From the NCBI GenBank assembly GCA_027313705.1, contig DAHVDE010000014.1, positions 1 to 64,000 of the forward strand: a stretch of 64,000 nucleotides of DNA, in the 5' to 3' direction. The notes below the pieces were generated by a model that searched no databases, was not told the origin of the DNA, and saw nothing but the letters and a program-made list of their open reading frames with translations. Position 1 is the stretch's first letter; every line of letters begins with the position of its first letter. Position numbers and translations under genes: made by a program. This document shows positions 30,318 through 61,637 of this stretch, piece after piece. Source of the DNA: Actinomycetota bacterium. Its GTDB lineage: Bacteria > Actinomycetota > Actinomycetes > Streptosporangiales > Streptosporangiaceae.

Positions 30318-30466
30318 CCGCCCCGCCTGGCCGAGAGTGTCCCTTCCGTTATTTAGTCGCTATTGACTATCTATCGATGGTCGTGCCAGAGTCCTCGCAC
30401 CAGGTCACGGCGGGTGCGCAGCCGAGCACGCCGCAGTGCCGCCGAGCCGATCAGGGAAAGTGGCCG

Positions 30467-32152: not shown

Positions 32153-32160
32153 GCGCGACG

Positions 32161-36788: not shown

Positions 36789-39700
36789 ATGATGATGGGA
36801 TCAGCTAGCGAGTCGCCGCGTGCACCCGGTACCACCGGGGCTGCGACGACTGCGCCGACCCGCACCGCGGGCTCCGAGCGGCGCGGCGAGCCTGCCGGAC
36901 CGCGGGACTCGGTACCGCTCTCTTTCGCCCAGCGGCGGCTGTGGATCCTGCATCACCTATTTCCCGAGTCGCCTTTTTATCATGTGCCAGTCGCCTACCG
37001 GCTTAAGGGTCATATTGACCGGGCCGCGCTCGATGCTGCCTGCACCGAGCTTATTGCTCGCCATGATGTGCTCCGGGCGTCTTACTATAACGATGCCGAG
37101 GGCGAGCCTTTTCAGCTGATTAATCCGCCGCGAAATATCGCGGTCCCGGTAATAGAAATCTCCGGAGCATCTGATTCCGAGCGGCTTGAGAATGCTCGGC
37201 AGGTAGCGCGGGAACGTAGCCGGATACTGTTCGCGCTCGGCGCCGGATACGTGATACGCGCGGACTTGCTGCGACTTGGCGCCGATGACCACATCCTGCT
37301 GATCGTCTTGCACCACATAGTCGCGGATCACTGGAGCCTCGGCGTACTCGCGAACGAACTTTCAGCGCTTTATGCGGCGCACCTGGAGCCGGGACCCGCA
37401 CCGCGACAGGCGGCGCCGCCCCTGCTGCGGCAGTACGCTGACCATGCAGAACTCCAAGCCAGAAGGCTCGGTAACGGTGCATTCGACCGGCATCTCGACT
37501 ATTGGCGCAAACAGCTAGCTGACCTGACAGTGCCTGTGATTCCTGGCGATCGACCGCGCCCGCCGGTACCGAACTTCGAAGGCGCCAGGACCTCAATAGA
37601 CATCGATCGCGAAGTTATGCATGGTTTGCGCATGTTCGCGGGCAAAGCGCGTGTTACTGTCTTCGCGGTCATGCTTGCCGGGTTGAAGGTGCTGTTGTCG
37701 AGATACTGCGGCACCGACGACATCGCAGTTGGCTGCGCGATGGCCGACCGGAGCGAGTCAGAATTTGAGCTGCTTGTCGGCGCGTTCGTCGACAGCGTGG
37801 TAATCCGCACTGACCTGTCCGGAAACCCTGGCTTCACCGAATTGGCCAGGCGGGTACAGCGAGTAACCCTCGACGCGCACGAGCACAGGGACCTGCCGTT
37901 CGAGAAGCTGGTGGAAGTATTCGCGCCCGACCGCGATCTCAGTTACACGCCGTTCTTCACCGTGGCGGTCTCGTACCTGAGCGCGCCCACGTCCAGCCTG
38001 GAGTTGCCTGGCGTGACGGCCACGGCCTTCAGCTTCGATCCCGGCCTGGTGCGTTTCGACGCCGACCTGTTCGTCAGCGACAAGGACGGCGTGGTCACCC
38101 TTGACCTGGACTACCGCACCGACATCTTCGACCGCGAGACGATGGAGCGGTTGCTCGCCCGCTACGTGCACGTGCTCAAGAGCGCGATCGACCGCCCGGA
38201 GTGCGCCGTCAGCGAGCTGACGCTGCTCGATGACGCCGAACGGGCAAAGATTGCCCGCTTCGGCCTTGGCCAGGAGGTTCATCGGGCCTGGCGGGCCGTC
38301 CCCGATCTCGTCGCGGCCCAGGCGGCCCGCGCGCCCCTGGCGATCGCGGTCACCAGTGCGGGTCGCTCGCTCAGCTACGCCGAGCTCGACCGGCGCGCCG
38401 AGATGCTGGCCGGCGTGCTTCGGCAGCATGGCGTAGGTCCCGAGGTGCTGGTGGGCGTCGGGCTGAAGCGCTCGGCTGACCTGGTCGTCGCGCTGCTTGG
38501 CGTGCTCAAGGCGGGCGGCGGCTATCTCGCGCTCGATCCCGACCATCCGGCCGACCGGCTGGCCTACCTGGTGCGCGACAGCGGCGTGCGGCTGGTGGTA
38601 GCCGAGTCTTCGCCTGGCAACGGTGATCGTTACGGCGATGCGGTCGTCATCGACCCGGCCGGCGTCGGGCCGGACGCGCCAGGAGGGCAGGACGCGCCGG
38701 GAAGGCCGGCCCCGCCAGCGCCCGCGGAGTTGCCCGCCGTGACCGGCGCGGCGCAGCTTGCCTATGCGATCTACACATCAGGATCGACCGGCAGGCCCAA
38801 GGGCGTGCTCGTCACTCACGGCGGGCTGGCCAATCTGTGCGACTGGCATGTCAGGCGGTATGAGATTACGCCGGCGGACCGGGCCACCATGGTCGCCGCG
38901 CAGAGCTTCGACGCCTCGGTATGGGAGCTGTGGCCCTACCTGACCGCCGGGGCGCGCGTGTGCATCGCCGACGATGCCACCCGCACCGATCCTGACCTGC
39001 TCAGCGCCTGGCTGCGCGAACAGTGCGCCAGCGTGATGTTCGCGCCGACCCCGATGGCTGAGCTGCTGATGTCTCGTGCCGACGCGGCCGGGCTGCCGAT
39101 TCGCGCCCTGCTGACCGGCGGTGACACGCTGCGCAAGCACCCTGCGGACGGCCTGCCCTTCGAGCTGTTCAACCACTACGGCCCGACCGAGTGCGCGGTG
39201 GTGGCAACCGCTGGCCCGGTGCCGCCATTGCCGCCGGGAGCGCGCCCTGAGCAGGTGGCCATGCCCGACATCGGCCGGCCGATCGACAACGTCAAGGCCG
39301 TCGTGCTCGACAAGCACCTGCGGCCGGTTCCTGTCGGGCTGGTCGGCGAGCTTTACCTGGGCGGTGCCGGAGTGGCGCGCGGGTACCTTGGCAGGCCGGG
39401 GCTGACGGCGAGCCGGTTCTTGCCCGACCCGGATGGGCCGCCAGGGTCGCGGCTGTACAGCACGGGTGACCTGGTTCGCTGGCGGCCGGAAGGCACGCTC
39501 GAGTTTTGCGGGCGCAATGACAGGCAGATCAAGATCAGGGGTTACCGCATCGAGCCTGGCGAGATCGAGGCCAGGCTCTGCGCCTACCCGGGCGTCTCTG
39601 AAGCGGTTGTGACCGCGGTCCAGACGCCGTCCGGCCGGGAAACCGGGCGACTGGCGGCGTACCTGACCAGCGCGGGGGAGCACGAGCCTGGCCAGGACGA

Positions 39701-40211
39701 CCTGCGGGCCTGGCTCGCTGACCGGCTGCCTGACTACATGATTCCCGCCACGTTCACCGTGCTGCCCAGGCTGCCGATTACGGGCAACGGGAAGATCGAC
39801 TACGCGGCACTGCCCGCGCCAGCGGCCACCGCCGCGCAGCCCAGCCTGCGTCCGCCGCGCACGGAGACCGAACGCCGGCTCGAGGCGATCTTCAACGAGG
39901 TCTTCGACCGCACGGCCACCAGCCTGGAGGATGACTTCTTCGATCTGGGCGGGCACTCCGTGCTCGCGGTGATGCTGGCCAGCCGGGTCCAGCGCGAGTT
40001 CGGGGTAAAGTTGCCCGTCCGCAGCGTGTTCAGGGCGCCGACCATCGAGCGGCTGGCCGAAGAGGTCGCGGCCGCCCAGTCGGCAAGCGAGGATGAGGTC
40101 AGCAGGCGCCTGCTCGGCGCGCTGTCGGCCATGTCGCCAGAACAGGCGCGCGAACTGGTCGAGTCGGCCCTGGGCAACCCGGGCACACCGCAGGCGGGGA
40201 TAGCGCAATGA
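36789..40211 (+). CDS. Nonribosomal peptide synthetase, C-A-PCP, predicted Leu-like
   Basis: 1140 aa; start ATG 36789 (two more ATGs follow directly) with CAGGAGG upstream. Condensation domain residues about 42-470, active site HHIVADH near 175 (catalytic second His and Asp kept, usual Gly replaced by His). Adenylation domain about 495-1005, with A3 YTSGSTGRPKG near 660 and A10 NGKIDY near 1000. The specificity residues, read against GrsA, give D-A-W-F-L-G-H-V-V-K, one change from a known Leu code. Carrier domain LGGHS near 1055. No epimerase or TE. A 40-residue disordered start may be a docking region. Its stop overlaps the next NRPS as ATGA. Confidence 0.93.
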   Translation: MMMGSASESPRAPGTTGAATTAPTRTAGSERRGEPAGPRDSVPLSFAQRRLWILHHLFPESPFYHVPVAYRLKGHIDRAALDAACTELIARHDVLRASYYNDAEGEPFQLINPPRNIAVPVIEISGASDSERLENARQVARERSRILFALGAGYVIRADLLRLGADDHILLIVLHHIVADHWSLGVLANELSALYAAHLEPGPAPRQAAPPLLRQYADHAELQARRLGNGAFDRHLDYWRKQLADLTVPVIPGDRPRPPVPNFEGARTSIDIDREVMHGLRMFAGKARVTVFAVMLAGLKVLLSRYCGTDDIAVGCAMADRSESEFELLVGAFVDSVVIRTDLSGNPGFTELARRVQRVTLDAHEHRDLPFEKLVEVFAPDRDLSYTPFFTVAVSYLSAPTSSLELPGVTATAFSFDPGLVRFDADLFVSDKDGVVTLDLDYRTDIFDRETMERLLARYVHVLKSAIDRPECAVSELTLLDDAERAKIARFGLGQEVHRAWRAVPDLVAAQAARAPLAIAVTSAGRSLSYAELDRRAEMLAGVLRQHGVGPEVLVGVGLKRSADLVVALLGVLKAGGGYLALDPDHPADRLAYLVRDSGVRLVVAESSPGNGDRYGDAVVIDPAGVGPDAPGGQDAPGRPAPPAPAELPAVTGAAQLAYAIYTSGSTGRPKGVLVTHGGLANLCDWHVRRYEITPADRATMVAAQSFDASVWELWPYLTAGARVCIADDATRTDPDLLSAWLREQCASVMFAPTPMAELLMSRADAAGLPIRALLTGGDTLRKHPADGLPFELFNHYGPTECAVVATAGPVPPLPPGARPEQVAMPDIGRPIDNVKAVVLDKHLRPVPVGLVGELYLGGAGVARGYLGRPGLTASRFLPDPDGPPGSRLYSTGDLVRWRPEGTLEFCGRNDRQIKIRGYRIEPGEIEARLCAYPGVSEAVVTAVQTPSGRETGRLAAYLTSAGEHEPGQDDLRAWLADRLPDYMIPATFTVLPRLPITGNGKIDYAALPAPAATAAQPSLRPPRTETERRLEAIFNEVFDRTATSLEDDFFDLGGHSVLAVMLASRVQREFGVKLPVRSVFRAPTIERLAEEVAAAQSASEDEVSRRLLGALSAMSPEQARELVESALGNPGTPQAGIAQ

Positions 40212-43200
40212 GCGAGCAAGACAGCGCGCCTGGCGAGCTTTCCGCGCTGCTCGCCCGCCTCGACCCCGCGCAGCGCCAGGCACTGCTCAGCCAGCTAGAC
40301 GGTGCCGCGAACCCGGCGGGTGCCGGTGCCGTCGGCAGGGCAGATAAGGGAGCGGCAGGCGAGGTGCCGCGGGCGCAGGTCGCCAGGCGCGGTGCGGCGC
40401 AGGCGCCGCTTTCTTTCGCCCAGCGCGGCCTGTGGTTCTTGCATCACCTGCGGCCGCAGGACACGGCGTATCACATCTGCTATGCGATCGAGTGGGACCG
40501 GGCGCCTGACGTGACCGCGCTGAACTCCGCGCTCGATGTCCTGGTCGGGCGGCATGAGGCGCTGCGCACCGTATTCCCCGCGATCGACGGCGAGCCCAGG
40601 CAGGTGATCCTGCCCGCCATGAGCGTGCCACTGGCCGAGGTTGACCTCGGCAGCGGCGACAGCGCCGGGGAACAGAAATGGACGCAAAGCGCGGCGGCGC
40701 AGCCATTTGACCTGGAGCGCGGTCCGCTCATTCGCGCCACGCTCATCCACAGCGGCGGCAGGGCCACGCTCGTCATCGCGGTACACCACATCATCTTCGA
40801 CGCCCGCTCGACGGAGATCCTGCTCGGCGAGCTCGCCGTCCTTTACGACGCTCAGGTGGCGGGGGTACCGCACCGCCTCGCACCGCTGCCGGTGCAGTTC
40901 GCCGACTTCGCGGCCTGGCAGCACGAGTTGCTTGCCGGTACTGCGCTCGACCAGGACCGGGCGTACTGGCACGCGAAGCTGGCCGGGGCTCAGGCACTTG
41001 CGCTGCCCGTCGACCGCCAGCGCGGGCGGGTGCTCAGGTCGGCGGGCGCCGTGCACCGGTTCGAGGTCCCCGCCGAACTGCGGGCCAGGCTGGCCGGTGT
41101 CGGGCGCCGCCGCGACGCGACCTTGAACATGGTCCTGCTCGCCGGGTATTTCGCCCTGCTGTACCGGTACACAGGGCGCGAAGACATCGTGGTAGGCACC
41201 TCGGTCACGAGCCGCAGCAGGCCCGAGCTCGAGGACCTGATCGGCTACTTCCTCAATACCTTGGTACTGCGGTCGGCGCTGGCTGCCGAACTGCCGTTCG
41301 GTGCGCTCGTCGAACAGGTGCGGACCACCGTGCTCGAAGCCTTCGAGCACGGTGACATGCCGTTCGAGCAGCTCATCGAGGACCTGGCGCCAGAGCGGGA
41401 AATCGGCGCCCTGCCGCTGGTGCCGGTACTTTTCGCCTTCGCTACCCGCGGCGACGCTAAGCAGGGCGACGCAGGCAGCGGACTGGCCGCTCGCGGCGTG
41501 ACGAGCCGGGGAGCGCGCGCCGACCTGACGCTCATGTTCTTCGACGGGTCAGACGGTCTGCACGGCGCGCTTGAATACGACCTCGGGCTGTTCGACGCCG
41601 ATACCATCGAGCGGATGGGCGGACGACTGCTGCGGTTGCTCGCGGCCGCCGCGGCGGCGCCAGATACCACGCTCGGCGGCCTGCCGATCACTGCGGACTG
41701 GGAGGCGGCCGAGCTAGCGGGGTGGAATACCGCCACCGGGCCGACCTGGCCGGCTGACACGCTCGTCACGATGGTGACCGACCAGGCGCGCCGCGCTCCC
41801 TTCGCCATCGCGGTGAGCGATGAGCAAACTCAGATCAGTTATGCCGAGCTTGACCGGCGGTCGGACCTGGTCGCCTCCTGGCTGGCAGCGGCGGGCACCG
41901 GGACAGGCCAGCCGGTCGCGGTGCTGCTGCCGCGCAGCGCCGAGCAGGTGGTCGCGCTAGCCGGGATACTCAAGGCCGGGGGCGCCTACCTCCCGCTCGA
42001 CCCTGGCTACCCGCCGGGGCGGCTGCGGTTCATGGGAGCAGACGCCGGCGCGCGGGTGGTCATCACCCGCGCGCATCTCGCCGAACTGGCCGCTGAGGTG
42101 CTGCCAGGCAGCGACCGCGTGCTTTTGATTGACCAGCCATCGGACGACCAGGTGAGCGTGCCTGCTGGCGGGTCCTCGCCTCGCCGCGGCCTGGTGCATC
42201 GGGACCAGCCCGCCTATTTCCTGTATACCTCGGGTTCTACCGGCCGGCCGAAGGGCGTGGTCAACACCCATCGCGGGCTGATCAACCGGCTCGGCTGGAT
42301 GCTCGATCACTTCGGCGTTACCTCAGCTGACGTCATCTTGTACAAGACTCCGATGAGCTTCGACGTGTCGTTGTGGGAACTCGTGCTGCCCTTGATGGCA
42401 GGCGCGCACCTGGTGGCGGCCGGGCCGCATGGGCACATGGACCCCGCCTACCTCACTGACCTGATCGAGCGGCACGGCGTCACCATGGTCCATTTCGTGC
42501 CTTCGATGCTCCAGGCCTTCCTCGCCGGAACCGATCCGGCCAGGTGCTCCTCGCTGCGCCAGGTGCTCTGCAGCGGCGAGGCGCTGTCGGCCGCGCTCAG
42601 GGACCGGTATTACTCGGCGGGCTTTGCCGCGGAGCTGCAGAACCTCTACGGGCCGACCGAGGCAGCGATCGACGTGACCCACTGGGCCTGCGGCAGGGAA
42701 GATGCGGGCGAGGTCCCGATCGGAGTGCCGATCGCCAACACGGCCAGCTACGTGCTTGACCCGCGCGGCCAGCAGCTGCCCGCCGGCATTCCCGGCGAGC
42801 TGTGGATCGGCGGCTGCCAGCTAGCGCTCGGCTATGCCGGCCGGCCAGGACTGACCGCTGCCACGTTCTGCCCCGACACCTTCGGAAGCCAGCCAGGCGG
42901 GCGGCTCTACCGCACCGGCGATATCGCCAGGCGCCGCCGCGACGGCGCGCTTGAGTACCTCGGTCGGCAAGACCAGCAGGTCAAGCTGCGCGGCCACCGC
43001 ATCGAACTGGCCGAGATCGAGGTCGCGCTCCGGGCACACGACCGGGTGAGCGACGCCGTCGTGCTGCTCACCGGCACGGGCCAAGACGCCAGGCTGGTCG
43101 CCTACATCGTGCCCGCGGGCGATGTCAGCGAAGGCGGCCCGCCCTCGCACGCGGAGCTGCGTGACCATCTTGGCCGGGCGCTCCCTGCGTACATGGTGCC

Positions 43201-43642
43201 CTCAAGTTACGCGCTCATCGACGCCATACCGCTGACCGCGAACGGCAAGGCAGACAGGAACGCGCTGGCCGCCGTTGTCCCGCAAGCGGTCAGGCCGGCG
43301 GAATACGTGGCGCCGCGCGACAGCTTCGAAATGGCGGTGGCTGACCTGTTCACCGAACTGACAGGTGCCGAGCGGGTCAGTGCCCATGACGGCTTCTTCG
43401 AGATCGGCGGCCATTCCCTGCTCGCGCTCAGGCTGCGCGCCCGCGTGCACCGTGACTTCGGGGTGGACCTGCCGCTCGGACAGGTCTTCGAAGACCCCAC
43501 CGTGGCCGGCCTGGCCGCGAAGATCGTCCGTCAGATCACCGAGTGGGCCGACGCGGCGGAACTCCTGGCCGGCTCTTCTTCGGCATCACTTCATCCGGGC
43601 GAGGAGTCCGGGCCGGCTTTCGCGGCGGAAGGCGAACCGTGA
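40208..43642 (+). CDS. Nonribosomal peptide synthetase, C-A-PCP, predicted Ser
   Basis: 1144 aa. N-terminal docking-like region (residues 1-60), C domain with HHIIFDA near 193, A domain about 510-1015 with A3 YTSGSTGRPKG near 674 and A10 NGKADR near 1011, carrier domain IGGHS near 1068. The specificity residues read D-V-W-H-L-S-L-I-D-K, the textbook serine code. It overlaps the upstream NRPS by 4 bp, so the two modules are translated together and probably work in series (Leu-like then Ser, or with an upstream donor). No TE at the C-terminus; the chain must pass to another protein. Confidence 0.94.
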   Translation: MSEQDSAPGELSALLARLDPAQRQALLSQLDGAANPAGAGAVGRADKGAAGEVPRAQVARRGAAQAPLSFAQRGLWFLHHLRPQDTAYHICYAIEWDRAPDVTALNSALDVLVGRHEALRTVFPAIDGEPRQVILPAMSVPLAEVDLGSGDSAGEQKWTQSAAAQPFDLERGPLIRATLIHSGGRATLVIAVHHIIFDARSTEILLGELAVLYDAQVAGVPHRLAPLPVQFADFAAWQHELLAGTALDQDRAYWHAKLAGAQALALPVDRQRGRVLRSAGAVHRFEVPAELRARLAGVGRRRDATLNMVLLAGYFALLYRYTGREDIVVGTSVTSRSRPELEDLIGYFLNTLVLRSALAAELPFGALVEQVRTTVLEAFEHGDMPFEQLIEDLAPEREIGALPLVPVLFAFATRGDAKQGDAGSGLAARGVTSRGARADLTLMFFDGSDGLHGALEYDLGLFDADTIERMGGRLLRLLAAAAAAPDTTLGGLPITADWEAAELAGWNTATGPTWPADTLVTMVTDQARRAPFAIAVSDEQTQISYAELDRRSDLVASWLAAAGTGTGQPVAVLLPRSAEQVVALAGILKAGGAYLPLDPGYPPGRLRFMGADAGARVVITRAHLAELAAEVLPGSDRVLLIDQPSDDQVSVPAGGSSPRRGLVHRDQPAYFLYTSGSTGRPKGVVNTHRGLINRLGWMLDHFGVTSADVILYKTPMSFDVSLWELVLPLMAGAHLVAAGPHGHMDPAYLTDLIERHGVTMVHFVPSMLQAFLAGTDPARCSSLRQVLCSGEALSAALRDRYYSAGFAAELQNLYGPTEAAIDVTHWACGREDAGEVPIGVPIANTASYVLDPRGQQLPAGIPGELWIGGCQLALGYAGRPGLTAATFCPDTFGSQPGGRLYRTGDIARRRRDGALEYLGRQDQQVKLRGHRIELAEIEVALRAHDRVSDAVVLLTGTGQDARLVAYIVPAGDVSEGGPPSHAELRDHLGRALPAYMVPSSYALIDAIPLTANGKADRNALAAVVPQAVRPAEYVAPRDSFEMAVADLFTELTGAERVSAHDGFFEIGGHSLLALRLRARVHRDFGVDLPLGQVFEDPTVAGLAAKIVRQITEWADAAELLAGSSSASLHPGEESGPAFAAEGEP

Positions 43643-47045: not shown

Positions 47046-48200
47046 TCAGTTCTCCTGTCCGGCCCGGTCGATGGCCGCCGCCACTAGCTGGAGCATCATT
47101 TCCGAGGTGCCGGCCGACAACGTCACGCCAGGTGCCTCGAGGTAGCCCTCGTCGAGCACGGCGGCCAGGCCCCCTGCCGCACGCTGGGCGGCGGTCGGCA
47201 CGCTGCCCGCCCACCTGGCGATGGAGCCGGCCAGCTCGCCCGCGTGATACCTGGCTATCGCGGCGGAGGTCTCGTCGACCTTGTCCGCCTTGATCTGGCC
47301 AAGTACGTCCCAGGCAAGCAAGTGGCTGGCGTGCAGGCTCGCGCTGTTCCTGCCGATCAGCTCGAGCACGCTATCGCTAGCGTCGCGAGGCACCGGGTAC
47401 TGCTCGGCCAGGCAGGCAAGCGCGGCCTCGAACCAGCGCTCGGCCTTCAGGTAGTAGTCGAGCCCGTTCCGCTCGATAGGCAGGCCCTTGCTCAGCAGCG
47501 CCCACCCTTCGCCTGGCCGGCCAAGCACGCAGTCGGCGGGCACGAAGGCGCCGTCGAGTTCCACCCGGTAGAAAGGCTCATCCCAGATGGTCGGGATCGG
47601 CGATACCGAGATGCCTGGCGTCGCCATGTCCACCATGAACAAGGTGATCCCGGCATACCGCGTATCGCCTTCGCCGGTGCGTGCCGCGCACAGGCTGTAT
47701 GCCGCCAGGTGCGTCTTGAGGCTGAACACCTTCGTGCCGGTCAGCCGGAAGCCGTCGCCCGCAGGTTGCGCCACCGTGGTCAGTGACCCGATGTCGCATC
47801 CGGTGCCCGGCTCGGTGTAGAGGACGCTGACGAAGTGCTCGCCGCGCGCGATCGGCGGCAGGTGCCGCAGTTTCTGCTCCCGGTTTCCGATGGCAAGCAG
47901 GAACTGGCCGACGATCTGCACCGTGCTGATGTGCAAGGTCTCAGGTACTCCGGCCCGCGCCAGTTCCTCGGTGACGATGCCGCCGAAATTGAAGGGCAGG
48001 CCGAGGCCGCCGTACTCGGCCGGCCACTGCGGCGCGAGCAGGTTACGCTCGCCGAGCAGCAGGTGCAGCCGCTGCAATTCCGCGCCGCCGACGTTGTCAT
48101 CGGGCAGGCCGGCCAGCGCCGCCTGTATCTCTGTGCCGCGCAACTCGGCCCTGATCCGGGCCCTGAACTCCTCTTCCGCCGTGGTGAAACCAAAGTCCAT
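47046..48200 (-). CDS. Acyl-CoA dehydrogenase (first of a pair)
   Basis: 384 aa. N-terminal helical domain (WPAEYGGLGLPFNFGGIVTE near residue 59), middle beta domain with YTEPGTGCDIGSLTTVAQ near 128 and GTKVFSL, and a C-terminal helical domain ending with TLSAGTSEMMLQLVAA. The S-A-G-T-S-E segment is the FadE-type variant of the usual catalytic loop. It follows the thioesterase gene with a one-base overlap. Likely removes two hydrogens alpha-beta to a thioester, with FAD. It is more conserved than its partner and presumably provides the catalytic residues. Confidence 0.88.
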   Translation of the reverse strand: MDFGFTTAEEEFRARIRAELRGTEIQAALAGLPDDNVGGAELQRLHLLLGERNLLAPQWPAEYGGLGLPFNFGGIVTEELARAGVPETLHISTVQIVGQFLLAIGNREQKLRHLPPIARGEHFVSVLYTEPGTGCDIGSLTTVAQPAGDGFRLTGTKVFSLKTHLAAYSLCAARTGEGDTRYAGITLFMVDMATPGISVSPIPTIWDEPFYRVELDGAFVPADCVLGRPGEGWALLSKGLPIERNGLDYYLKAERWFEAALACLAEQYPVPRDASDSVLELIGRNSASLHASHLLAWDVLGQIKADKVDETSAAIARYHAGELAGSIARWAGSVPTAAQRAAGGLAAVLDEGYLEAPGVTLSAGTSEMMLQLVAAAIDRAGQEN

Positions 48201-49102
48201 CAGCGGTCACCTCCCGATCTGCTGGCCAGTTCGCTGGCCGCGTCCTCGATAGCCCCGGCCAGCATTGGCAGGACCGGTGGCGTGAATAGCGTGTAGTGGT
48301 CGCCTGGCAGCCGGACGCAGCGGTAAGGTCCGGTCACGACCCGCCGCCAGAGCGCGTCGATCGAATCCGCCTGCTCGGCTACGCAGAGCACGACGGCACC
48401 GCCGAAGGGGCCGGCCGGCCGGTAGGAGAGCAGCCCGAGAGCACAGGACCTGAAGGTCTGGTAGCGCTCGGCAAGCTCGGCATCGGTCAGGGCCGGGTCC
48501 ACGTGCGCGGCCTCGAGCAGCCCGCGCACGCCGGTCACCGCAGGGTCGGCGGCCTGGACCGCAGCCCTGACCGCTGCGTGATCTCGCCCGGCCAGGCGGG
48601 CGAAGTCATAGACGAAGTGACTGCGCACCGTGGACTCGTCGTCCAGGTCCCTGTCGCCGTAGTAGGCCGCGTCGAGCAGCACCACGCTCGGGCGGGTGCC
48701 GGTGGCCGCCTCATGCCGCCGCGCCATCTCGAACGCCAGCGCTCCGCCATGGGACCAGCCGGAGAAGACGCAGGCTGCCGGGTCGGCGACCTTGGCCAGG
48801 GCGGCGAGCGTCCGGCCGGCCACGACTTCCAGCCTGGTAGCCAAGTCAAGGCCGGCGTCGGCCGGATCGGCAGGGAAGCCGATCACGTCGATATCGGGCC
48901 GCAGCGCCCGCACCAGCGGCGTGTAGCAGAACAGCGCGCCGCCTGACGGGTGCGCCAGCACCAGCCTGGCCGGGCCATCGCCTGGCCGCAGCGGCACCGG
49001 CTGATGGTCGGCCCTGGCCGCCGCCCTGGCCCGGCCGGCCTGGAGCTTGGCGTAAAGCGCCCGCCTGGACTCGGACATGGCATCGGCGCGGGACGAGCTC
49101 AC
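48200..49102 (-). CDS. Stand-alone thioesterase of the NRPS cluster
   Basis: 300 aa from GTG 49102, which overlaps the NRPS stop as GTGA; ATG 49078 is an alternative. Alpha/beta hydrolase with LAHPSGGALFCYTPLV near the oxyanion region, the nucleophile GWSHGGALAFEMARR near residue 113, and a C-terminal GDHYTLF holding the His. The sequence is closer to chain-releasing TE domains than to editing type II TEs, because of the PSGGALFCY segment, but this is a weak call. None of the complete NRPS proteins here has its own TE, so this protein may release the product. Confidence 0.88.
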   Translation of the reverse strand: MSSSRADAMSESRRALYAKLQAGRARAAARADHQPVPLRPGDGPARLVLAHPSGGALFCYTPLVRALRPDIDVIGFPADPADAGLDLATRLEVVAGRTLAALAKVADPAACVFSGWSHGGALAFEMARRHEAATGTRPSVVLLDAAYYGDRDLDDESTVRSHFVYDFARLAGRDHAAVRAAVQAADPAVTGVRGLLEAAHVDPALTDAELAERYQTFRSCALGLLSYRPAGPFGGAVVLCVAEQADSIDALWRRVVTGPYRCVRLPGDHYTLFTPPVLPMLAGAIEDAASELASRSGGDR

Positions 49103-52100
49103 GTCGTGTTGCCGTCGTCGAGCAGGCTGCTCACCTGGTCTTCTGGCATGTGCTCCAGCATTTCGAGCAATTCTTCGTCGCTTAGCTGCTCGGCCCGCCT
49201 GGCGTCGATGACGCTGGAGAGGTGAGCCACGGTAGGCGAGGCGAAGAAGTCGGCCAGTGACACCTCGACAGAGAACCTGCGGTTCAGCGCCGACATGAGC
49301 TGTGCCGCCTGGAGGCTGTTGCCTCCGGCCCTGAAGAAGTCGTCGTAGATCCCGACTCGCTCGTTCTTGAGCAGCGGCACGAGCACCTCGGTGAGCAGCA
49401 CCCGCTCGGTGTCGGTGCGAGGCGCGCCATCGGGCGCGGCGGGGCCGGCGGCCAGGCTCAGCTCCGGCGCGGGAAGCTGGCGCTTGTCGACCTTGCCGCT
49501 GCTGGTCAGCGGCAGCTCTTCCAGGACCACGAAGTAGGAAGGGATCATGTAGGCGGGCAGGATCCCGGCCAGGTGGTCGCGCAGTTCTTCGACGTCGGGC
49601 GCCCGGGTACCCGCGGTCACGTAGCCGACCAGGTGGCGCTCGCCTTCTTCGTCGGTCCACGGCTGGGCGGTGACCTGGCCGATGCCGCGGTAGCTTGCCA
49701 TAGCCGATTCGACCTCGCCAAGCTCGATCCGCAGTCCGCGTATCTTGACCTGCTCGTCGATCCGGCCGAGGAACACCAGTTGGCCGTCAGGCTGCCTGCG
49801 CACCAGGTCGCCGGTGCGGTACAGCCTGCCGCCTGGCGCGGTGCCGAACGGGTCGGTCACGAACTTCTCGGCGGTCAGCTCTGGCCTGCGCAGGTAGCCG
49901 CGGGCCAGGCCGGCGCCGCCGATGACCAGTTCGCCTGGCAGTCCGGCGGGCACCAGCCGGAGCTTGTCGTCGAGAACGTGCCCGACGTGATTGGTCATCG
50001 GCAGCCCGATCGGCGGCGATGACGACCAGCTACCAGGGCACTCCGCCACGATCATGGTGACCGTGCACTCGGTCGGGCCGTACCCGTTGAACAGCCGCCT
50101 CCCGACGTTCCACCTGTTCACCAGTTCGCCGCTGAACTCCTCGCCGCCGACGAACGCGATCCGCAGGCTTGAGTAAAGCTCGGGTTCCAGCAGCGGCATG
50201 ACGGTCGGCGGCAGGTCGATCACCGTGATGCCCTCGCCGGCCAGCACGGCGGACAGGCGGCGGAGGTCGAGCCGCTCACTGTCGCCGAGCAGATGCAGCC
50301 GGGCGCCGTTGAGCAGGGAAGCGAAGGTCTCGAACACCGAGACGTCGAAGGTGGCCGAGGCGAAGCCGAGTATGGCGTCCGCGGGCGTCAGGTCGAACAG
50401 GTCCCTGGTCGTGTCGGCGAAGTTGACGACGCTGCGATGCTCGACGAGCACGCCCTTGGGCTGTCCGGTGCTGCCTGAGGTGTAGATCACGTAGGCGACG
50501 TCCTGCGGACCCGCGGCAAGCGGCGGGTTGCCTGCCGCGTGCGCCGCCAGTTCCCCGGCCATGGCGTCCACCGCGAGCAGCGGTGCCGACACTCCGGCGA
50601 GCGCCCCGGTGAGGTCGGAATGGCAGAGCACCGCGGCGAGTCCGGCATCGGCCGCGAGTGCGCTCAGCCTGGCGGGCGGCGCGGCGGTGTCGAGCGGCAC
50701 GTAGGCCGCTCCCGCCTTGAGCGTCGCCAGCATCGCGACGGTCAGGTCGGCGGTGCGGTGCAGGCAGAGCCCGACGAAGGAGCCCTGGCCCGCGCCGTGC
50801 TCGCGCAGGGCGGCGGCCAGCTTGTTGGCCCGCTCGTTGAGCTCGGCATAGCTGAGCCGCTGTTCGCCCGCGGCCAGCGCGAGGTGCCCTGGCGATCGCC
50901 TGGCCTGCTCTTCGAACTCGGCCACGATGGTGGTCTCGCGCACCGGCCGCATCGGGCCGCTGCCGATCGCCAGCAGTTCCTCGCGTTCCGCGGCGGTCAG
51001 CAATTGCACGCCTTCGATCGGCACGTCAGGCGCGGCCACCAGGTTCTTGAGCATCTCGTGGTAGTGCCCGGCGTGGCGCAGCATCGTCTGCTGGTCGAAC
51101 AGGTCAGTGTTGAACTCGATCGCCAGTACCGCATCGCCCTCGCGCTCGGCGATGTTCCAGCTCATGTCGAGCCGCGAGGTGACGATGTTAGGTATCTGGT
51201 ACTCCATCGTGACCTCGGGCAGCGTCAGCGGCGCCCCGGCGTTCTGCAGCGCGAAAGTAATCTGGAATACCGGCGACCTGGACGCGTCACGCGGCGGGTT
51301 GACCGCGTCGACGAGCTTGCCGAACGGCAGGTCGCTGTGCGCGATGGCGTCGAGTATCACCGGCTTGAGGCGGTTCACCAGCTCACGGAACGTCGGGTTG
51401 CCTGACAGGTCGGCGCGGAGCACCATCATGCCGATGAAGAACCCGATCACCGGCTCGACCGATGAATAGCGCCGGTTCGCGTTGGGTGCGGCGATGACCA
51501 GGTCGTCACTGCCGGAGCAGCGCTGCAGCCAGGTGAAGTAGGCGGCGACCCAGACCGTGAACGGGGTGACGCCCTCTTCCCTGGCAAGCGCCCTGATGCC
51601 GCGCAGCGCCTCGCCGCCGATGGTGGTGCTGACCTGCGAGCCGTTGAAACTGACCGAGTCCGGCCTTGGCCGGTCGGCAGGGAATTCCAGCGTCTGCAGG
51701 CCGGCGAGCTGGTCGCGCCAGTAGCCGGCCAGCTCGTCCATGTTGCCTGACAGCCACTCCCGCTGCCAGGCGCAGTAGTCCGGGTACTGCACGTTGAGCT
51801 CGGGTAGCTGCGGCTCCGTGCCCTCCACCCGCGACCGGTACAGTTCGGCAAGCTCGCCGCTCAGCAGCCCGAGCGACCAGCCGTCGAACACGATGTGATG
51901 CACGTTGAACACGAACAGGTAGTCATCGGGCGCGAGCCTGAGCAGGTAGGCACGCCAGAGCGGCAGCTTGGTCAGGTCGAGCGGTGCGACGATCTCGGCG
52001 TCGAGCATCTCCTGCGCGCGCCGCTCGCGCTCGGCGAGGGTGTCGCCAGGCACGTCGATCACCGGGATCTCGGCGGGCACGTGGTCGGCGATCACCTGGA

Positions 52101-52425
52101 CGGGACCGTCTTCGCGCTCGGCGATCGCCGTCCGCATCGCCTCGTGCCTGGCCACCACCCCGGCAAGCGCGGCGCGCAGCGCGTCGATGTCGAGATTGCC
52201 GCGCACCCGGTGAAAGAGCGGCACGCTGTAGACCGGCCGGCCTGGCGCCAGCCGGTCAAGGAACCACAGGCTTTCCTGCGCGTGCGAAAGCGGCGCGGGC
52301 CCGGTGTCCCTGCGGGGCTGCGGGCCGCGGGTGGCCACGCCTTCGACCTGGGCGCGGAGCTGGGCGAGGAACTTGGCTCGCCGCTCCTCTGGCAGGTTGG
52401 CTAGCCGCTTCATCATGTCGGTCAT
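49099..52425 (-). CDS. Nonribosomal peptide synthetase, C-A-PCP, unusual substrate code
   Basis: 1108 aa. C domain with canonical HHIVFDG near residue 173; A domain about 490-980 with A3 YTSGSTGQPKG near 648 and A10 SSGKVDK near 975; carrier domain AGGNS near 1035 followed by an acidic tail. Specificity residues read D-V-F-D-F-G-G-V-T-K, which matches no common amino acid code I know. The acidic residue at the GrsA-278 position often pairs with a basic or amino-bearing side chain. The gene follows the LysK-like gene with ATGA overlap, at the end of the carrier-protein pathway, so its substrate may be the DADH-type diamino acid. A TE gene follows. Confidence 0.93.
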   Translation of the reverse strand: MTDMMKRLANLPEERRAKFLAQLRAQVEGVATRGPQPRRDTGPAPLSHAQESLWFLDRLAPGRPVYSVPLFHRVRGNLDIDALRAALAGVVARHEAMRTAIAEREDGPVQVIADHVPAEIPVIDVPGDTLAERERRAQEMLDAEIVAPLDLTKLPLWRAYLLRLAPDDYLFVFNVHHIVFDGWSLGLLSGELAELYRSRVEGTEPQLPELNVQYPDYCAWQREWLSGNMDELAGYWRDQLAGLQTLEFPADRPRPDSVSFNGSQVSTTIGGEALRGIRALAREEGVTPFTVWVAAYFTWLQRCSGSDDLVIAAPNANRRYSSVEPVIGFFIGMMVLRADLSGNPTFRELVNRLKPVILDAIAHSDLPFGKLVDAVNPPRDASRSPVFQITFALQNAGAPLTLPEVTMEYQIPNIVTSRLDMSWNIAEREGDAVLAIEFNTDLFDQQTMLRHAGHYHEMLKNLVAAPDVPIEGVQLLTAAEREELLAIGSGPMRPVRETTIVAEFEEQARRSPGHLALAAGEQRLSYAELNERANKLAAALREHGAGQGSFVGLCLHRTADLTVAMLATLKAGAAYVPLDTAAPPARLSALAADAGLAAVLCHSDLTGALAGVSAPLLAVDAMAGELAAHAAGNPPLAAGPQDVAYVIYTSGSTGQPKGVLVEHRSVVNFADTTRDLFDLTPADAILGFASATFDVSVFETFASLLNGARLHLLGDSERLDLRRLSAVLAGEGITVIDLPPTVMPLLEPELYSSLRIAFVGGEEFSGELVNRWNVGRRLFNGYGPTECTVTMIVAECPGSWSSSPPIGLPMTNHVGHVLDDKLRLVPAGLPGELVIGGAGLARGYLRRPELTAEKFVTDPFGTAPGGRLYRTGDLVRRQPDGQLVFLGRIDEQVKIRGLRIELGEVESAMASYRGIGQVTAQPWTDEEGERHLVGYVTAGTRAPDVEELRDHLAGILPAYMIPSYFVVLEELPLTSSGKVDKRQLPAPELSLAAGPAAPDGAPRTDTERVLLTEVLVPLLKNERVGIYDDFFRAGGNSLQAAQLMSALNRRFSVEVSLADFFASPTVAHLSSVIDARRAEQLSDEELLEMLEHMPEDQVSSLLDDGNTT

Positions 52426-53558
52426 AGTTGGCTCCCTTCCAAGCCTTCAGTGCGGCTGGCCACGGCGGGCGTGGCCACGGTGTCGCTCAGCTCGCCGAGA
52501 GCGTGCGACAGGACCGCAACGCCCCTGATGTAGTCGGCCAGCATGATGTGCTCGTCGTCGGCGTGGTCGAGCTTGCTGTCTCCAGGCCCGTAGGTCGCCA
52601 TCGGCACGTCCCAGACCTCGGCCAGCGTGTTCATGTCTGAGGTGGCGGTCTTGACCATGACGGAAGGCTGGCCGAGTTGCTTCCTGATGCCCGCGGTCAG
52701 CGCCCGCACCGCCGGGTTGCGCCGGTCGGCACGGCACGCGGCGACCGAGTTGACGATCGCCAGGTCCCCGGCGGTCAGTCTGGACCTGACCGAGCCGACG
52801 AAGCCGGCTACATCGAACCCTGGCGGCGTGCGCACGCTCACGGCGGCGACGGCGCGGCTGGTGTCCGCTGAGATCGAGTCGAGGGTGATGCCAGGCTTGT
52901 CGAACGCGGTGTGGTCGGCATCGCCGAGCACGTCGTTGAGCACCCGCCAGCAACTAGCCGCCAGCTCGGAGGCCTTGGGCGCCGGATTGCTCGGGTGGGT
53001 GGGCGCGCACTCGACGCTATAGCGGAGGTCGAGCTTGCCTTTGTAGCCGAGCACCACGGTGAAGCAACCGCTCGGCTCGCCGATGATCACCGCGTCCGGC
53101 TTGGCGAAGGTGTTCCTGATCGCGACCGCGCCCCGCGAGCACGGCGTCTCCTCCTCGACCACGCCGGCCACGATGATCTTCCCGGTGAACTCGGTGGCGC
53201 TGGCCGCCGCGCAGATCATGGCCGCGAGCGGTCCCTTGGCGTCGGCTGCGCCTCGCCCGTAAAGCCTGCCGCCCGCCGACCGAACCGGGACATGGCCCTG
53301 GATCGTGTCCAGGTGCCCGAGCAGCATGATCACCGGGCCAGGGCCGCGTTCGAGCATGCCGATCACGTTGCCCGCGCCGTCGACGTAAGACCAGAACCCG
53401 AGTCCGGCCATGGCCTCCGCGAGATAGGCGGCGAGGTCCATCTCACGGTAGGAAGGCGAAGGGATCTCCAGCATCTGGCGCAGCAGCCCGACGGCGTAGG
53501 CCTCCCTGACCCTGCCCTCGGCGTTGAATACCCGGCCAGCGGTGACCCGGCCGCTCAT
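52422..53558 (-). CDS. M20-family hydrolase, LysK/ArgE-like (release from carrier protein)
   Basis: 378 aa from ATG 53558 overlapping the kinase stop (ATGA). Metal-binding motifs of M20/DapE/LysK: LLGHLDTIQGHVPV near residue 66, GRGAADAKGPLAAMI near 88, the catalytic EEETPCSRG near 120, GEPSG near 147, and a final ligand His in KLDHADDEHIM near 343. In Thermus and archaea LysK cleaves the isopeptide bond that joins the product amino acid to LysW. Here it should free the finished amino acid from the 54-aa carrier encoded in the same operon. Confidence 0.88.
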   Translation of the reverse strand: MSGRVTAGRVFNAEGRVREAYAVGLLRQMLEIPSPSYREMDLAAYLAEAMAGLGFWSYVDGAGNVIGMLERGPGPVIMLLGHLDTIQGHVPVRSAGGRLYGRGAADAKGPLAAMICAAASATEFTGKIIVAGVVEEETPCSRGAVAIRNTFAKPDAVIIGEPSGCFTVVLGYKGKLDLRYSVECAPTHPSNPAPKASELAASCWRVLNDVLGDADHTAFDKPGITLDSISADTSRAVAAVSVRTPPGFDVAGFVGSVRSRLTAGDLAIVNSVAACRADRRNPAVRALTAGIRKQLGQPSVMVKTATSDMNTLAEVWDVPMATYGPGDSKLDHADDEHIMLADYIRGVAVLSHALGELSDTVATPAVASRTEGLEGSQL

Positions 53559-54406
53559 CGCGCCCGCTCCGCGTACTCGCCGAGCACCACCGAGGTGGCC
53601 GCGCCTGCCAGCGCGCCGCGAACCGGCTTGTCCGCCCTGGCGTCGCCGATCAGCACCCGCGGCACCCCGGCGGCGAGAGCCGTGCGGGCCGCGATGAGCT
53701 TCACGCCCATGCCTCCTGCCCGCTGCGGCGGCGGCCCGGCGGGCGGCACCTCGCAGACCGCGAGCACTGAGCCAGGGTCGCCGGCGTCGGCGAGCACGCC
53801 AGGGGCGCTGGTGAGCAGCACGAGCACGGCGGCGCGCATCGCCACGGCCACCGCGGCAGCCACCTGGTCGGCGTCCGCATTGACCGGCTTCAGATCGCCA
53901 GCAAGCACCGGCGGGCAGATCACCGGCAGGAAGCCCGCGTCGAGCAGGCACCAAAGCAGCGCGGTCCGCACGTCCGTGATCCGGCCGCTGTGATCACCGC
54001 GCACGACGACCTGGCGGCCGTCGCGGATCGTTCGCTGCGCGGTACGCCGCGCGGCGCGCAGCAGCCCTCCGTCGATGCCGGTCAGCCCGACTGCGGCAGT
54101 GCCGGCCGCGAGCAGCGCGGTCACCAGCCTGGGCTGCACCGCGCCGGCCAGGGCGAGCGTCACCACCTCGAGCGTGCCCGCGTCGGTGACCCGCGCCGAC
54201 AGGCCGTCAGGTGAGGTCATTCGCCGCATCGGCACGCCGAGCCTGGCACCTAGCCGGTCGATCTCGGTCGAGCCGCCGTGCACCACGATCACCGGGCGGC
54301 CATCGCCTGCCAGGGCGGCGACGTCGGCGCTGAACGCGCTCACGTCGCCGGCTGCCCGGCCGCCGTACTTGACCACCATCACCTCACGAGCCGTTACGTC
54401 ACCCAT
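53555..54406 (-). CDS. LysZ/ArgB-like amino-acid kinase acting on carrier-bound glutamate
   Basis: 283 aa from ATG 54406, with GAGGTG 6 nt upstream. Amino-acid-kinase fold: MVVKYGG near residue 10, VIVVHGGSTEIDRL near 38, and PVNADADQVAAAVAVAM near 165. It would phosphorylate the side-chain carboxylate of glutamate attached to the carrier. Homology alone cannot separate ArgB from LysZ; the neighbouring LysW-like carrier and LysX-like ligase favour LysZ. The 3' end overlaps the LysK-like gene. Confidence 0.87.
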   Translation of the reverse strand: MGDVTAREVMVVKYGGRAAGDVSAFSADVAALAGDGRPVIVVHGGSTEIDRLGARLGVPMRRMTSPDGLSARVTDAGTLEVVTLALAGAVQPRLVTALLAAGTAAVGLTGIDGGLLRAARRTAQRTIRDGRQVVVRGDHSGRITDVRTALLWCLLDAGFLPVICPPVLAGDLKPVNADADQVAAAVAVAMRAAVLVLLTSAPGVLADAGDPGSVLAVCEVPPAGPPPQRAGGMGVKLIAARTALAAGVPRVLIGDARADKPVRGALAGAATSVVLGEYAERAR

Positions 54407-54414
54407 CGCGCACC

Positions 54415-55470
54415 TCAGTTCGGATGCAGGCCGGGAAATTCGAGCCCGAGCCGCTCCGGCCAGCCGAGCCTGATGTTGAGGCATTGCACCGCCGCTCCCG
54501 CCGCGCCCTTGACCAGGTTGTCGAGCGCGGCGATCACGACGATGCGGCGGCCTTGCGGTTCGACCGCGAACCCGACGTCGCAGAAATTGGAGCCGAGCAG
54601 GATCTTGGGTTCGGGGAACCTGTAGTTGCCGCGCCGCTTGGCGACGACCCTGACGAACGGCTCATCCTGGTAGGCCCGCCGGTAGGCCTGCCGCACGTTG
54701 GCCTCGCCCGCCCCGGCGGCGAGAGTGCCGTGACAGAGCAGCTGGACGCCGCGTACCGCCTCCACGCCGGTGGCCGACATCCGCACCGCAAGCCCGGTCT
54801 CCTGGGTGATCTCGGCCTGGTGCCGGTGCGAGGTCGGCGCGAACACGCGCATCGCGCCGCTTCGCTCGGCGTGCAGGTTAGCCTCGCCTGCCCCGGCGCC
54901 GGCGCCGCTCGATCCTGACCTCGCGTCGATCTCGACCGGTCCGTCGAGCAGGTGTGCCAGCGGCCCGAGCGCGAGTATCCCTGCCGTGGCCATGCAGCCA
55001 GGCACGCTGATCAGGTCGGCATCCTTCAGCTCTGCCCGGTGCCGCTCGGGCAGTCCGGGAACGAACGCGCCGATCAGGTCGGGCGCGGTGTGCGGCACGC
55101 CGTAGTACCCGGCGTAGACCGCTGGATCGCGCAGCCTGAAGTCGGCGGACAGGTCGACGATGTGCTTCGCCGTGCCGAGCATGGCGGGCAGCACGTCCAT
55201 GGTCTGCCGGTGCGGCAGGGCAAGAAGCAGCACGTCGGCCTCGCCGAGCCGGTCAGGCGCGGTGAACGTCAGATCGCAAAGGCCGCGCAGATTCGGGTGC
55301 ACGGTGTCGATCCGTCGGCCTGCCAGCCTGGTCGAGGTCGCCGCGACGACTTCGACCAGCGGATGGCCGATCAGCAGCCGCAGCAGTTCGCCCCCGACGT
55401 AGCCGGCGCCGCCCGCGATGGCGGCCCTGATGGCCGGGCAGGCCCCGGCGGTTGCGGTCAGTTCTGGCAT
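54415..55470 (-). CDS. LysY/ArgC-like N-acyl-gamma-glutamyl-phosphate reductase
   Basis: 351 aa from ATG 55470. Rossmann start AIAGGAGYVGGELLRLLIGH near residue 16, VDLSADFRLRDPAVYAGYYG near 110, and catalytic Cys in SVPGCMATAGILAL near 158; C-terminal GSNFCDVGF and LDNLVKGAAGAAVQ. NADPH-dependent reduction of the acyl phosphate to a semialdehyde on the carrier. Overlaps the LysX-like gene by 13 bp and is followed after 8 bp by the kinase gene. Confidence 0.9.
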   Translation of the reverse strand: MPELTATAGACPAIRAAIAGGAGYVGGELLRLLIGHPLVEVVAATSTRLAGRRIDTVHPNLRGLCDLTFTAPDRLGEADVLLLALPHRQTMDVLPAMLGTAKHIVDLSADFRLRDPAVYAGYYGVPHTAPDLIGAFVPGLPERHRAELKDADLISVPGCMATAGILALGPLAHLLDGPVEIDARSGSSGAGAGAGEANLHAERSGAMRVFAPTSHRHQAEITQETGLAVRMSATGVEAVRGVQLLCHGTLAAGAGEANVRQAYRRAYQDEPFVRVVAKRRGNYRFPEPKILLGSNFCDVGFAVEPQGRRIVVIAALDNLVKGAAGAAVQCLNIRLGWPERLGLEFPGLHPN

Positions 55471-56339: not shown

Positions 56340-56500
56340 TCGCCCCAGTCCTCCTCGACCTCTGGCGCGAGTGCCAGGGTGACCGGGTCGAGCGAGAGGA
56401 TCTCGAGTTCGCTACGGCAGTCAGCGCACTCGAGGATCTCGCTCAGGCGAGACTGGGACGGGATGGCTACTGCTACATCGCAGACGGGGCAGCTGATCAT
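56336..56500 (-). CDS. LysW-like amino-group carrier protein (AmCP), 54 aa
   Basis: ATG 56500 to TGA 56336. The protein opens MISCPVCDVAVAIP, continues LSEILECADCRSELEILSLD and ends EVEEDWGE. The two CxxC pairs (C4, C7, C25, C28) form the zinc knuckle, and the EDWGE tail with Glu54 as last residue matches Thermus LysW exactly in length and attachment motif. The carrier masks the alpha-amino group of the substrate through its terminal Glu. It overlaps the transketolase stop upstream (ATGA) and the ligase start downstream (GTGA). As it is only 54 codons long it is easily missed by annotation. Confidence 0.95.
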   Translation of the reverse strand: MISCPVCDVAVAIPSQSRLSEILECADCRSELEILSLDPVTLALAPEVEEDWGE

Positions 56501-57468
56501 GATCTACTCCAGGCGAGCGGTTGTGATTCCAGTACGGCGCGCACCCGGCCGGCGATGCCCTGGGCATCGACTCCGTGGCGCTGGAGAATCTCCTCTTGGC
56601 ACCCGACGCCTGGTGCAAGCACGTCGGGCAGGCCGATCCGCAGGACGCGGCGCGGCACGGACTCGGCGAGTACCTCGGCGACCAGGCCGCCGAGGCCGCC
56701 TGTGGTCCTGTGCTCCTCCACCGTGACGACCAGGGCCGACCTCGCCGCGCAGTCGAGCAGGGTGGCCAGGTCGAACGGGCGCAGGGTGTGCACGTTCAGA
56801 ACGCAGGCGCCGATGCCTGCGCGGGCAAGCAGTTCCGCCGCGCTGAGCCCGGCAAGCACGGGAAGCGGACCGCAGCACGCGATCACCACGTCGTCGCCGT
56901 CGCGCAGTCGCTGTACCTGGCCGATCACCGCCTGCCCTGAGCCGGCCGGCAGCGGCGCCGTCGCCTTCCTGCCCAGGCGTACATAGAGCGGGCCGTCGAT
57001 CGCCGCGGCCTGCTCGACGACGCTGGCCGCGGCGCTGGCGTCGGCGGGAACCACGACGGTCATGGCGGGCAGTGCTCGCATCACGGCGAGATCTTCGAGC
57101 GCGAAGTGGGTGAACCCGAGATGCCCGGCGGCCACGCCGCCGTGGGTCGCCATGATCCGCACCGGCAGCTCGTTGTAGGCGATGTTGATCTTGACGGATT
57201 CCAGCGCCCGGGTGCTCGCGAAGGTGGCCATCGTGTTGACGAACGGCACCAGCCCTGTCCTTGCCATCGCGGCGGCGGCGGCCATCGCGGTGTGCTCGGC
57301 GATGCCGAGGTCGAGGTACCGGCACGCGGCCGGGCCGAAGTCCGTTCCCGTGAACAGGCCGGTGTCGGTGTCCAGGCACACGACCCTGGGGTCGGCCGCC
57401 ATCAGGGCGACCAGGCGGTCCCGGTAGGCGTGCCTGGTGGCGATGGCCTGGCTCGGCTCGCCGCTCAT
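56497..57468 (-). CDS. Transketolase-like protein, C-terminal (pyrimidine-binding) subunit
   Basis: 323 aa from ATG 57468 with AGGAG upstream. Pyrimidine domain with the catalytic Glu in YLDLGIAEHTAMAAAAAMA near residue 56 and ATHGGVAAGHLGFTHFALED near 112; C-terminal transketolase domain from about 200. Together with the adjacent N-terminal subunit it makes a split thiamine-diphosphate transketolase. In vazabitide A biosynthesis such a pair moves a two-carbon hydroxyacetyl unit onto carrier-bound glutamate semialdehyde. Its stop overlaps the carrier gene. Confidence 0.9.
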   Translation of the reverse strand: MSGEPSQAIATRHAYRDRLVALMAADPRVVCLDTDTGLFTGTDFGPAACRYLDLGIAEHTAMAAAAAMARTGLVPFVNTMATFASTRALESVKINIAYNELPVRIMATHGGVAAGHLGFTHFALEDLAVMRALPAMTVVVPADASAAASVVEQAAAIDGPLYVRLGRKATAPLPAGSGQAVIGQVQRLRDGDDVVIACCGPLPVLAGLSAAELLARAGIGACVLNVHTLRPFDLATLLDCAARSALVVTVEEHRTTGGLGGLVAEVLAESVPRRVLRIGLPDVLAPGVGCQEEILQRHGVDAQGIAGRVRAVLESQPLAWSRS

Positions 57469-61413: not shown

Positions 61414-61637
61414 GGCAGGCGGAATCTTCCCTGACGTCCCAGGCGGAGTGATCATCGGCAGCAGCGTGCCGTTGACTTTCCCGGCCCCTTCCCATCGCGG
61501 TAATGACGGCGGCGGCGAAAAGTAATCAGCGTGCTTACGTGCGATCGCGGGCCTTTTGCGACAGGCACTTACCACGTACAGTGGCCACGTTCGGCGGCCC
61601 GCAGGCCGCGTGCCGATCAGTTCCGCGGAGACGGCTC

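What the first reader, a model, noticed from the sequence alone, without database searches (positions are those of the whole stretch)
49099..52425. NRPS with unassigned adenylation code D-V-F-D-F-G-G-V-T-K in the DADH operon
The specificity residues, aligned by eye to GrsA, do not match any standard code I know. An acidic residue at position 278 suggests recognition of a positively charged side chain. The gene is translationally coupled to the LysK-like enzyme that would release DADH, so direct activation of DADH (or its cyclised form) is the simplest idea.
Basis: partly seen in the sequence, partly recalled or inferred. Interest (0 to 1): 0.7.

Follow-up and report, generated by a model that had tools for sequence, protein, structure and literature searches.

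The report
Loader module of an azabicycle pathway
The odd peptide-synthetase gene carries a substrate code that travels with the genes making a strained, DNA-reactive aziridine amino acid, so it most likely loads that home-made building block onto a carrier where its ring is finished; the cluster is a new relative of the known ficellomycin, azinomycin and vazabitide families.

Summary
Confirmed: the gene at 49099-52425 (-) is an intact C-A-T NRPS with code DVFDFGGVTK, coupled by an ATGA overlap to a LysK-like gene. The code is not a one-off. In 299 genomes of the order, 16 have the aziridine-synthase subunit AziU3 and all 16 have this code or a one- or two-residue variant; no best-matching A domain examined from a genome without AziU3 has it. 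Among 75 named AziU3 loci, 64 of 71 assessable have it, although the A domains differ widely (median pairwise identity 47%). The 7 without it also lack the acyl-CoA-dehydrogenase partner. The window operon encodes AziU2, AziU3, the LysW/DADH enzymes, a sulfotransferase and homologues of both chains of the ficellomycin Fic32-33 complex. In the closest, ficellomycin-type clusters the code is invariant while the C-domain HHxxxDG motif is usually lost. So the module most likely loads the pathway's own DADH-derived amino acid onto its carrier for desaturation and ring closure. The aziridine form is the likelier substrate; free DADH is not excluded. New member of a known kind. No biochemistry was done, and subscription papers on these pathways could not be read.

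The parts
49099..52425 (-). NRPS C-A-T module (N3) with A-domain code DVFDFGGVTK
   Evidence: Pfam domains, motifs, code positions
50056..50346 (-). Stretch encoding specificity residues 235-331 of the A domain (DVFDFGGVT); K517 codon at 49492-49494
48200..49102 (-). Thioesterase, GTG start overlaps the N3 stop (GTGA)
   Evidence: PF00975, junction sequence
47046..48200 (-). Acyl-CoA-dehydrogenase-like protein ACAD1, homologue of Fic32-33 chain A
   Evidence: PDB 8hk0_A E 8e-127; entry title and fold match Z 47.1, 52% identity
45920..47044 (-). Partner dehydrogenase ACAD2, homologue of Fic32-33 chain C
   Evidence: PDB 8hk0_C E 4e-75
52422..53558 (-). LysK-like hydrolase that would release DADH from LysW
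   Evidence: PF01546; [LysW]-lysine hydrolase NCBIfam model, PDB 5xoy
53555..54484 (-). LysZ-like amino acid kinase
   Evidence: PF00696
54415..55470 (-). LysY-like semialdehyde dehydrogenase
   Evidence: PF01118, PF22698
55458..56339 (-). LysX-like ATP-grasp ligase
   Evidence: PF08443, PF22626
56336..56500 (-). LysW amino-group carrier protein, ends EDWGE
   Evidence: NCBIfam lysW, PDB LysW, sequence
56497..57468 (-). Transketolase C-terminal half
   Evidence: PF02779, PF02780
57465..58364 (-). Transketolase N-terminal half
   Evidence: PF00456
58316..59659 (-). DegT-family aminotransferase
   Evidence: PF01041
59656..60786 (-). AziU3 homologue, aziridine synthase subunit (start inferred from overlap with AziU2)
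   Evidence: PDB 7wuw_C AziU3 E 4e-70, 8gs1_B Azi29; PF14399
60783..61400 (-). AziU2 homologue, aziridine synthase subunit
   Evidence: PDB 7wuw_A AziU2 E 1e-57, 8gs1_A Azi28
61503..62387 (+). Sulfotransferase
   Evidence: PF19798; conserved near AziU2/AziU3 in relatives
36789..40211 (+). NRPS C-A-T (N1), code DAWFLGHVVK
40208..43642 (+). NRPS C-A-T (N2), code DVWHLSLIDK (serine-like)
62677..64000 (+). NRPS C-A-T (N4), runs past the window edge to C113:65820, code DALFIGGTFK (valine-like)

Best explanation
The operon makes DADH on the LysW carrier (Glu, semialdehyde, two-carbon transketolase transfer, transamination), releases it with LysK, sulfates it and closes an aziridine with AziU2/AziU3. 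The N3 A domain (DVFDFGGVTK) then activates this DADH-derived amino acid, most likely the aziridine form, and loads it on the N3 carrier domain. There the Fic32-33-type dehydrogenase pair desaturates it between C-alpha and C-beta, the aziridine nitrogen adds to C-beta to give the 1-azabicyclo[3.1.0]hexane, and a C domain or the thioesterase passes it on. Shown here: the domains and motifs, the code, homology to AziU2/AziU3 and Fic32-33, the linkage to AziU3 and to the dehydrogenase, and C-domain decay with an unchanged code. From literature: DADH as precursor, sulfate elimination, AziU3/U2 as aziridine synthase. Inferred: the exact form loaded, the tethered desaturation, and the ring-closing step.
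For: AziU2/AziU3 and Fic32-33 homologues in the same operon. Order sample of 299: 16 AziU3 genomes, all 16 with the code type (15 DVFDFGGV[T/A]K, one DTFDFGGVAK), and none of the best A-domain hits coded from AziU3-negative genomes has it (hypergeometric P 8e-27, treating genomes as independent). 64 of 71 assessable named AziU3 loci have it. AziU3 genomes with the code have ACAD1 in 16 of 17 cases, those without it in 0 of 7. Over 80 F-type domains D235, V236, D278, G301 and K517 never vary while pairwise identity has median 47% and minimum 35%; at 40-48% identity to N3, F-type domains match the code at 8-10 positions and others at 3-7. In ficellomycin-type relatives HHxxxDG is lost in nearly all; in the two Herbidospora clusters N3 is the only NRPS A domain seen in 40 kb and an L-amino-acid ligase gene is present. 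S. niger ACAD1 from this group is a very close relative of Fic32 (690 bits over 382 residues). Literature: DADH, sulfation and aziridine route (PMC9570651); AziU3/U2 as aziridine synthase (PMC12559475).
Against: No substrate was tested. G303 (Streptomyces seoulensis) has the code and AziU3 but no ACAD1 at the threshold. Sister clusters with DVSDFGGVTK have N3, TE, both dehydrogenases and a sulfotransferase but no AziU2/AziU3, so the module can serve another amino acid. The window cluster also has serine-like, valine-like and N1 modules, so its N3 with an intact C domain may simply condense a finished building block. Several clusters have two such modules, which the model does not explain.
Confidence: 0.6

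Rival explanations
1. The A domain activates DADH itself (or DADH sulfate), and sulfation, aziridine formation and ring closure all happen on the carrier.
For: N3 is translationally coupled to LysK, which would release DADH. Asp278 could bind the C6 amine (inference).
Against: Seven AziU3 clusters with the LysW operon and (as far as seen) the sulfotransferase lack N3 and ACAD1, so sulfation and AziU chemistry do not need this carrier. AziU3/U2 works on a free sulfated amino acid in the literature (own knowledge of the Nishiyama work; short summary in PMC12559475).
Confidence: 0.2
2. The A domain activates the finished azabicyclic amino acid and N3 is an ordinary elongation module; the dehydrogenases act elsewhere, for example on a free or CoA-linked substrate.
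For: The window N3 has an intact C domain and the cluster has three more modules.
Against: In the nearest relatives the C domain is degenerate, yet the code, carrier, thioesterase and dehydrogenases are kept. Carrier-linked dehydrogenases (PigA, AnaB, ColB1) are structural relatives of ACAD1, though so are many CoA-dependent ones.
Confidence: 0.12
3. The A domain activates a different common amino acid that is always joined to the azabicycle, such as glutamine, ornithine or lysine.
For: An acid at position 278 occurs in codes for such amino acids (own knowledge).
Against: It would have to be present in all sub-types, including clusters where N3 is the only NRPS A domain seen and an L-amino-acid ligase is present.
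Confidence: 0.08

Closest known systems
Ficellomycin cluster (Streptomyces ficellus; Fic32-33, PDB 8hk0)
   Same: Both dehydrogenase chains are homologous to ACAD1 and ACAD2; clusters with very close Fic32 relatives carry the same A-domain code, TE, LysK, LysX, AziU2/U3, transketolases and sulfotransferase.
   Different: The window adds serine-like, valine-like and N1 NRPS modules, has an intact C domain in N3, and no L-amino-acid ligase of the Herbidospora type was found in the window or C113:61000-80000. The S. ficellus cluster itself was not among the loci.
Azinomycin B cluster (AziU2/AziU3, PDB 7wuw and 8gs1)
   Same: AziU2 and AziU3 homologues; DADH-type azabicycle precursor (PMC9570651).
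   Different: Azinomycin is described with N-acetylated intermediates (AziC2 to AziC6) and an iterative PKS (PMC9570651); the window uses LysW and no PKS was seen among the genes examined.
Vazabitide A cluster (LysW/AmCP route to DADH)
   Same: Complete LysW, LysX, LysZ, LysY, LysK, transketolase pair and aminotransferase set.
Carrier-tethered amino acid dehydrogenation (PigA/RedW prolyl-PCP, ColB1 cysteine)
   Same: Acyl-CoA-dehydrogenase fold acting on an aminoacyl carrier; ACAD1 matches the RedW model and the PigA, AnaB and ColB1 structures.
   Different: Here two unlike subunits, and a ring closure after desaturation is proposed but not shown.

Membership tests
1-Azabicyclo[3.1.0]hexane biosynthetic clusters (ficellomycin, azinomycin, vazabitide) | AziU2/AziU3 aziridine synthase pair | tested here: met
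   PDB sequence matches E 1e-57 and 4e-70
1-Azabicyclo[3.1.0]hexane biosynthetic clusters (ficellomycin, azinomycin, vazabitide) | DADH-forming enzymes (transketolase pair, kinase, reductase, aminotransferase) | tested here: met
   Pfam; same set in relatives
1-Azabicyclo[3.1.0]hexane biosynthetic clusters (ficellomycin, azinomycin, vazabitide) | Sulfotransferase for the leaving group | tested here: met
   PF19798 gene next to AziU2; its substrate was not tested
1-Azabicyclo[3.1.0]hexane biosynthetic clusters (ficellomycin, azinomycin, vazabitide) | Product contains an azabicycle | not testable with these tools
   Needs expression and chemistry
Ficellomycin-type cluster | Fic32-33-type dehydrogenase pair | tested here: met
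   8hk0 chains A and C, title
Ficellomycin-type cluster | L-amino-acid ligase as in the Herbidospora relatives (seen there; not known to be defining) | tested here: not met
   No tblastn match in the window or C113:61000-80000; so the window is not filed as a ficellomycin cluster
AmCP (LysW) pathway | LysW with C-terminal EDWGE plus LysX, LysZ, LysY, LysK | tested here: met
NRPS C-A-T module | Intact C, A and T motifs | tested here: met
A domain for a known standard amino acid | Code matches an assigned code | tested here: inconclusive
   No hit for the string in open papers; code databases were not available

The most novel reading that the evidence does not exclude
DVFDFGGV[T/A]K is the first recognisable A-domain code for an aziridine amino acid, and the A-T-TE part with the two dehydrogenases is a tethering station, separable from peptide-bond formation, where the azabicycle is closed on a carrier protein by desaturation and conjugate addition.
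Probability: 0.45. Interest if true: 0.7.

Novelty: new member of a known kind. Interest (0 to 1): 0.55.

Why it matters
How the second ring of azinomycin-type DNA alkylators is closed is still given as tentative in the 2022 review read here. A conserved code that marks the loading module lets such clusters be found from sequence, separates AziU clusters that should make an azabicycle from those that may stop at the aziridine, and turns the timing question into one loading assay with Fic32-33-type enzymes.

Tried and rejected
Paper search for the code string found nothing, and a 2025 catalogue of bacterial codes does not print it in its main text (its supplements could not be read). The DOI tried for the AziU3/U2 paper is not held. 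A plasmid search gave no A domain above 60% identity. Self-resistance by an AlkZ-like glycosylase in the cluster: such genes exist in the genome but no match lies on this contig. The genome scan returned neither S. ficellus nor S. sahachiroi by name, so their own modules could not be read. Chance as the source of the code is rejected by its recurrence. Common ancestry alone as the cause of the shared code is not fully excluded, but non-code columns have diverged widely.

Full report
Observation. The gene at 49099-52425 on the minus strand encodes 1108 residues with C, A and T domains and intact motifs. Its ATG overlaps the stop of the LysK-like gene, and its own stop overlaps the GTG of a thioesterase.

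Surroundings. The operon runs from AziU2 and AziU3 homologues through a DegT aminotransferase, a split transketolase, LysW, LysX, LysY, LysZ and LysK to N3, the thioesterase and two dehydrogenase-like genes. Both dehydrogenases match chains of one PDB entry, whose title is 'Crystal structure of Fic32-33 complex from Streptomyces ficellus NRRL 8067'. A sulfotransferase gene stands divergently next to AziU2. This is the gene set expected for a 1-azabicyclo[3.1.0]hexane: a review describes DADH, its sulfation, aziridine formation and a later, tentative cyclisation (PMC9570651), and another names AziU3/U2 an aziridine synthase (PMC12559475).

Is the code more than chance? LysX-guided retrieval gave related clusters in the same order; six of them had exactly the same code in A domains 58-70% identical, and paralogues had close variants. 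A scan with an AziU3 alignment found 75 named loci. Of these, 44 have the code type within the fetched flank. Seven do not, and four loci on short contigs were not assessed. In a sample of 299 genomes of the order, AziU3 occurs in 16 and all 16 have the code or a close variant; the best A-domain matches coded from AziU3-negative genomes have other codes. Only A domains above an E-value limit were coded, so weaker copies in AziU3-negative genomes could have been missed.

Selection on the pocket. Among 80 F-type A domains, median pairwise identity is 47%, yet five code positions never vary (two of them, D235 and K517, are near-universal in A domains) and four others are 96-99% constant; only position 331 changes freely, mostly T or A. 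At 40-48% identity to N3, F-type domains match at 8-10 code positions while unrelated domains match at 3-7. The code was used to define the F group, so this contrast is partly built in; the linkage to AziU3 is the independent part. F- and S-type domains share one group with support 100 that includes six other rows.

Linkage to the dehydrogenase. Of 24 AziU3 genomes searched, ACAD1 homologues occur in 16 of 17 with the code and 0 of 7 without it (Fisher P 2e-5, genomes taken as independent). So the module goes with the dehydrogenase pair rather than with aziridine formation as such. Conversely, twelve genomes carry a sister code DVSDFGGVTK; the three clusters read have N3, TE, both dehydrogenases and a sulfotransferase but no AziU2/AziU3, and two of them were found to carry an amino acid kinase and an aldo-keto reductase, one also an A-T-reductase and an argininosuccinate-synthase-like gene. 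The cassette can therefore be used on another amino acid.

A natural experiment. Among the closest relatives of N3, the ficellomycin-type clusters, the C-domain motif HHxxxDG is lost in 16 of 17 read, while the A code is unchanged. The S. niger member has an ACAD1 that is a very close relative of Fic32. In the two Herbidospora clusters of this group, N3 is the only NRPS A domain seen in 40 kb and an L-amino-acid ligase gene is present, which could form the peptide bond. There, loading, modification and release by A-T-TE is the simplest role, and the DADH derivative is the obvious non-standard amino acid at hand.

Mechanism. N3 most likely loads the aziridine amino acid made from DADH; the dehydrogenase pair desaturates it on the carrier; the aziridine nitrogen closes the five-membered ring; TE or a C domain moves it on. 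That some DADH-derived compound is loaded I hold at about 0.85; the full sequence of steps at about 0.6. Which form is loaded was not tested. In the window, serine-like, valine-like and N1 modules suggest that the unit is built into a longer peptide.

Novelty. The cluster is a new member of a known family. The code-to-pathway link seems undocumented in the open papers searched, but subscription papers on the fic, vzb and azi clusters were not readable, so priority cannot be claimed.

Noticed in passing
L245-L247 (three of twelve genomes with code DVSDFGGVTK): Sister clusters keep the N3-TE-ACAD1-ACAD2 cassette and a sulfotransferase but lack AziU2/AziU3, LysW and transketolase in the 20 kb read; they have an amino acid kinase, aldo-keto reductase and (L245) A-T-reductase and argininosuccinate-synthase-like genes. 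Possibly a different ring-forming pathway.
   Followed up: partly
L113, L114, L116, L142, L144, L145, L146: Clusters with LysW operon, sulfotransferase and AziU2/AziU3 but without the F-type A domain or ACAD1; they may make an aziridine amino acid that never becomes an azabicycle.
   Followed up: partly
L135, L140, L156, L164, L166, L184 and G186, G222 (L076/L077, L090/L091): Two F-type modules in one cluster, in some cases one by LysK/TE (VTK) and one by the dehydrogenases (VAK).
   Followed up: no
L123, L125, L149: AziU2, AziU3, F-type module and dehydrogenases without LysW or transketolase genes in the fetched stretch; source of the precursor unclear.
   Followed up: no
window 47046-48200 and 45920-47044: Neither dehydrogenase shows the usual catalytic YEG segment near its C-terminus (SAGTSE in ACAD1, RYGRPGE in ACAD2), and ACAD2 matches only the C-terminal Pfam domains, so the pair may share one active site.
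   Followed up: no
window 30164-35795: An oligopeptide-type ABC transporter operon lies left of the NRPS genes; link to the cluster not tested.
   Followed up: no
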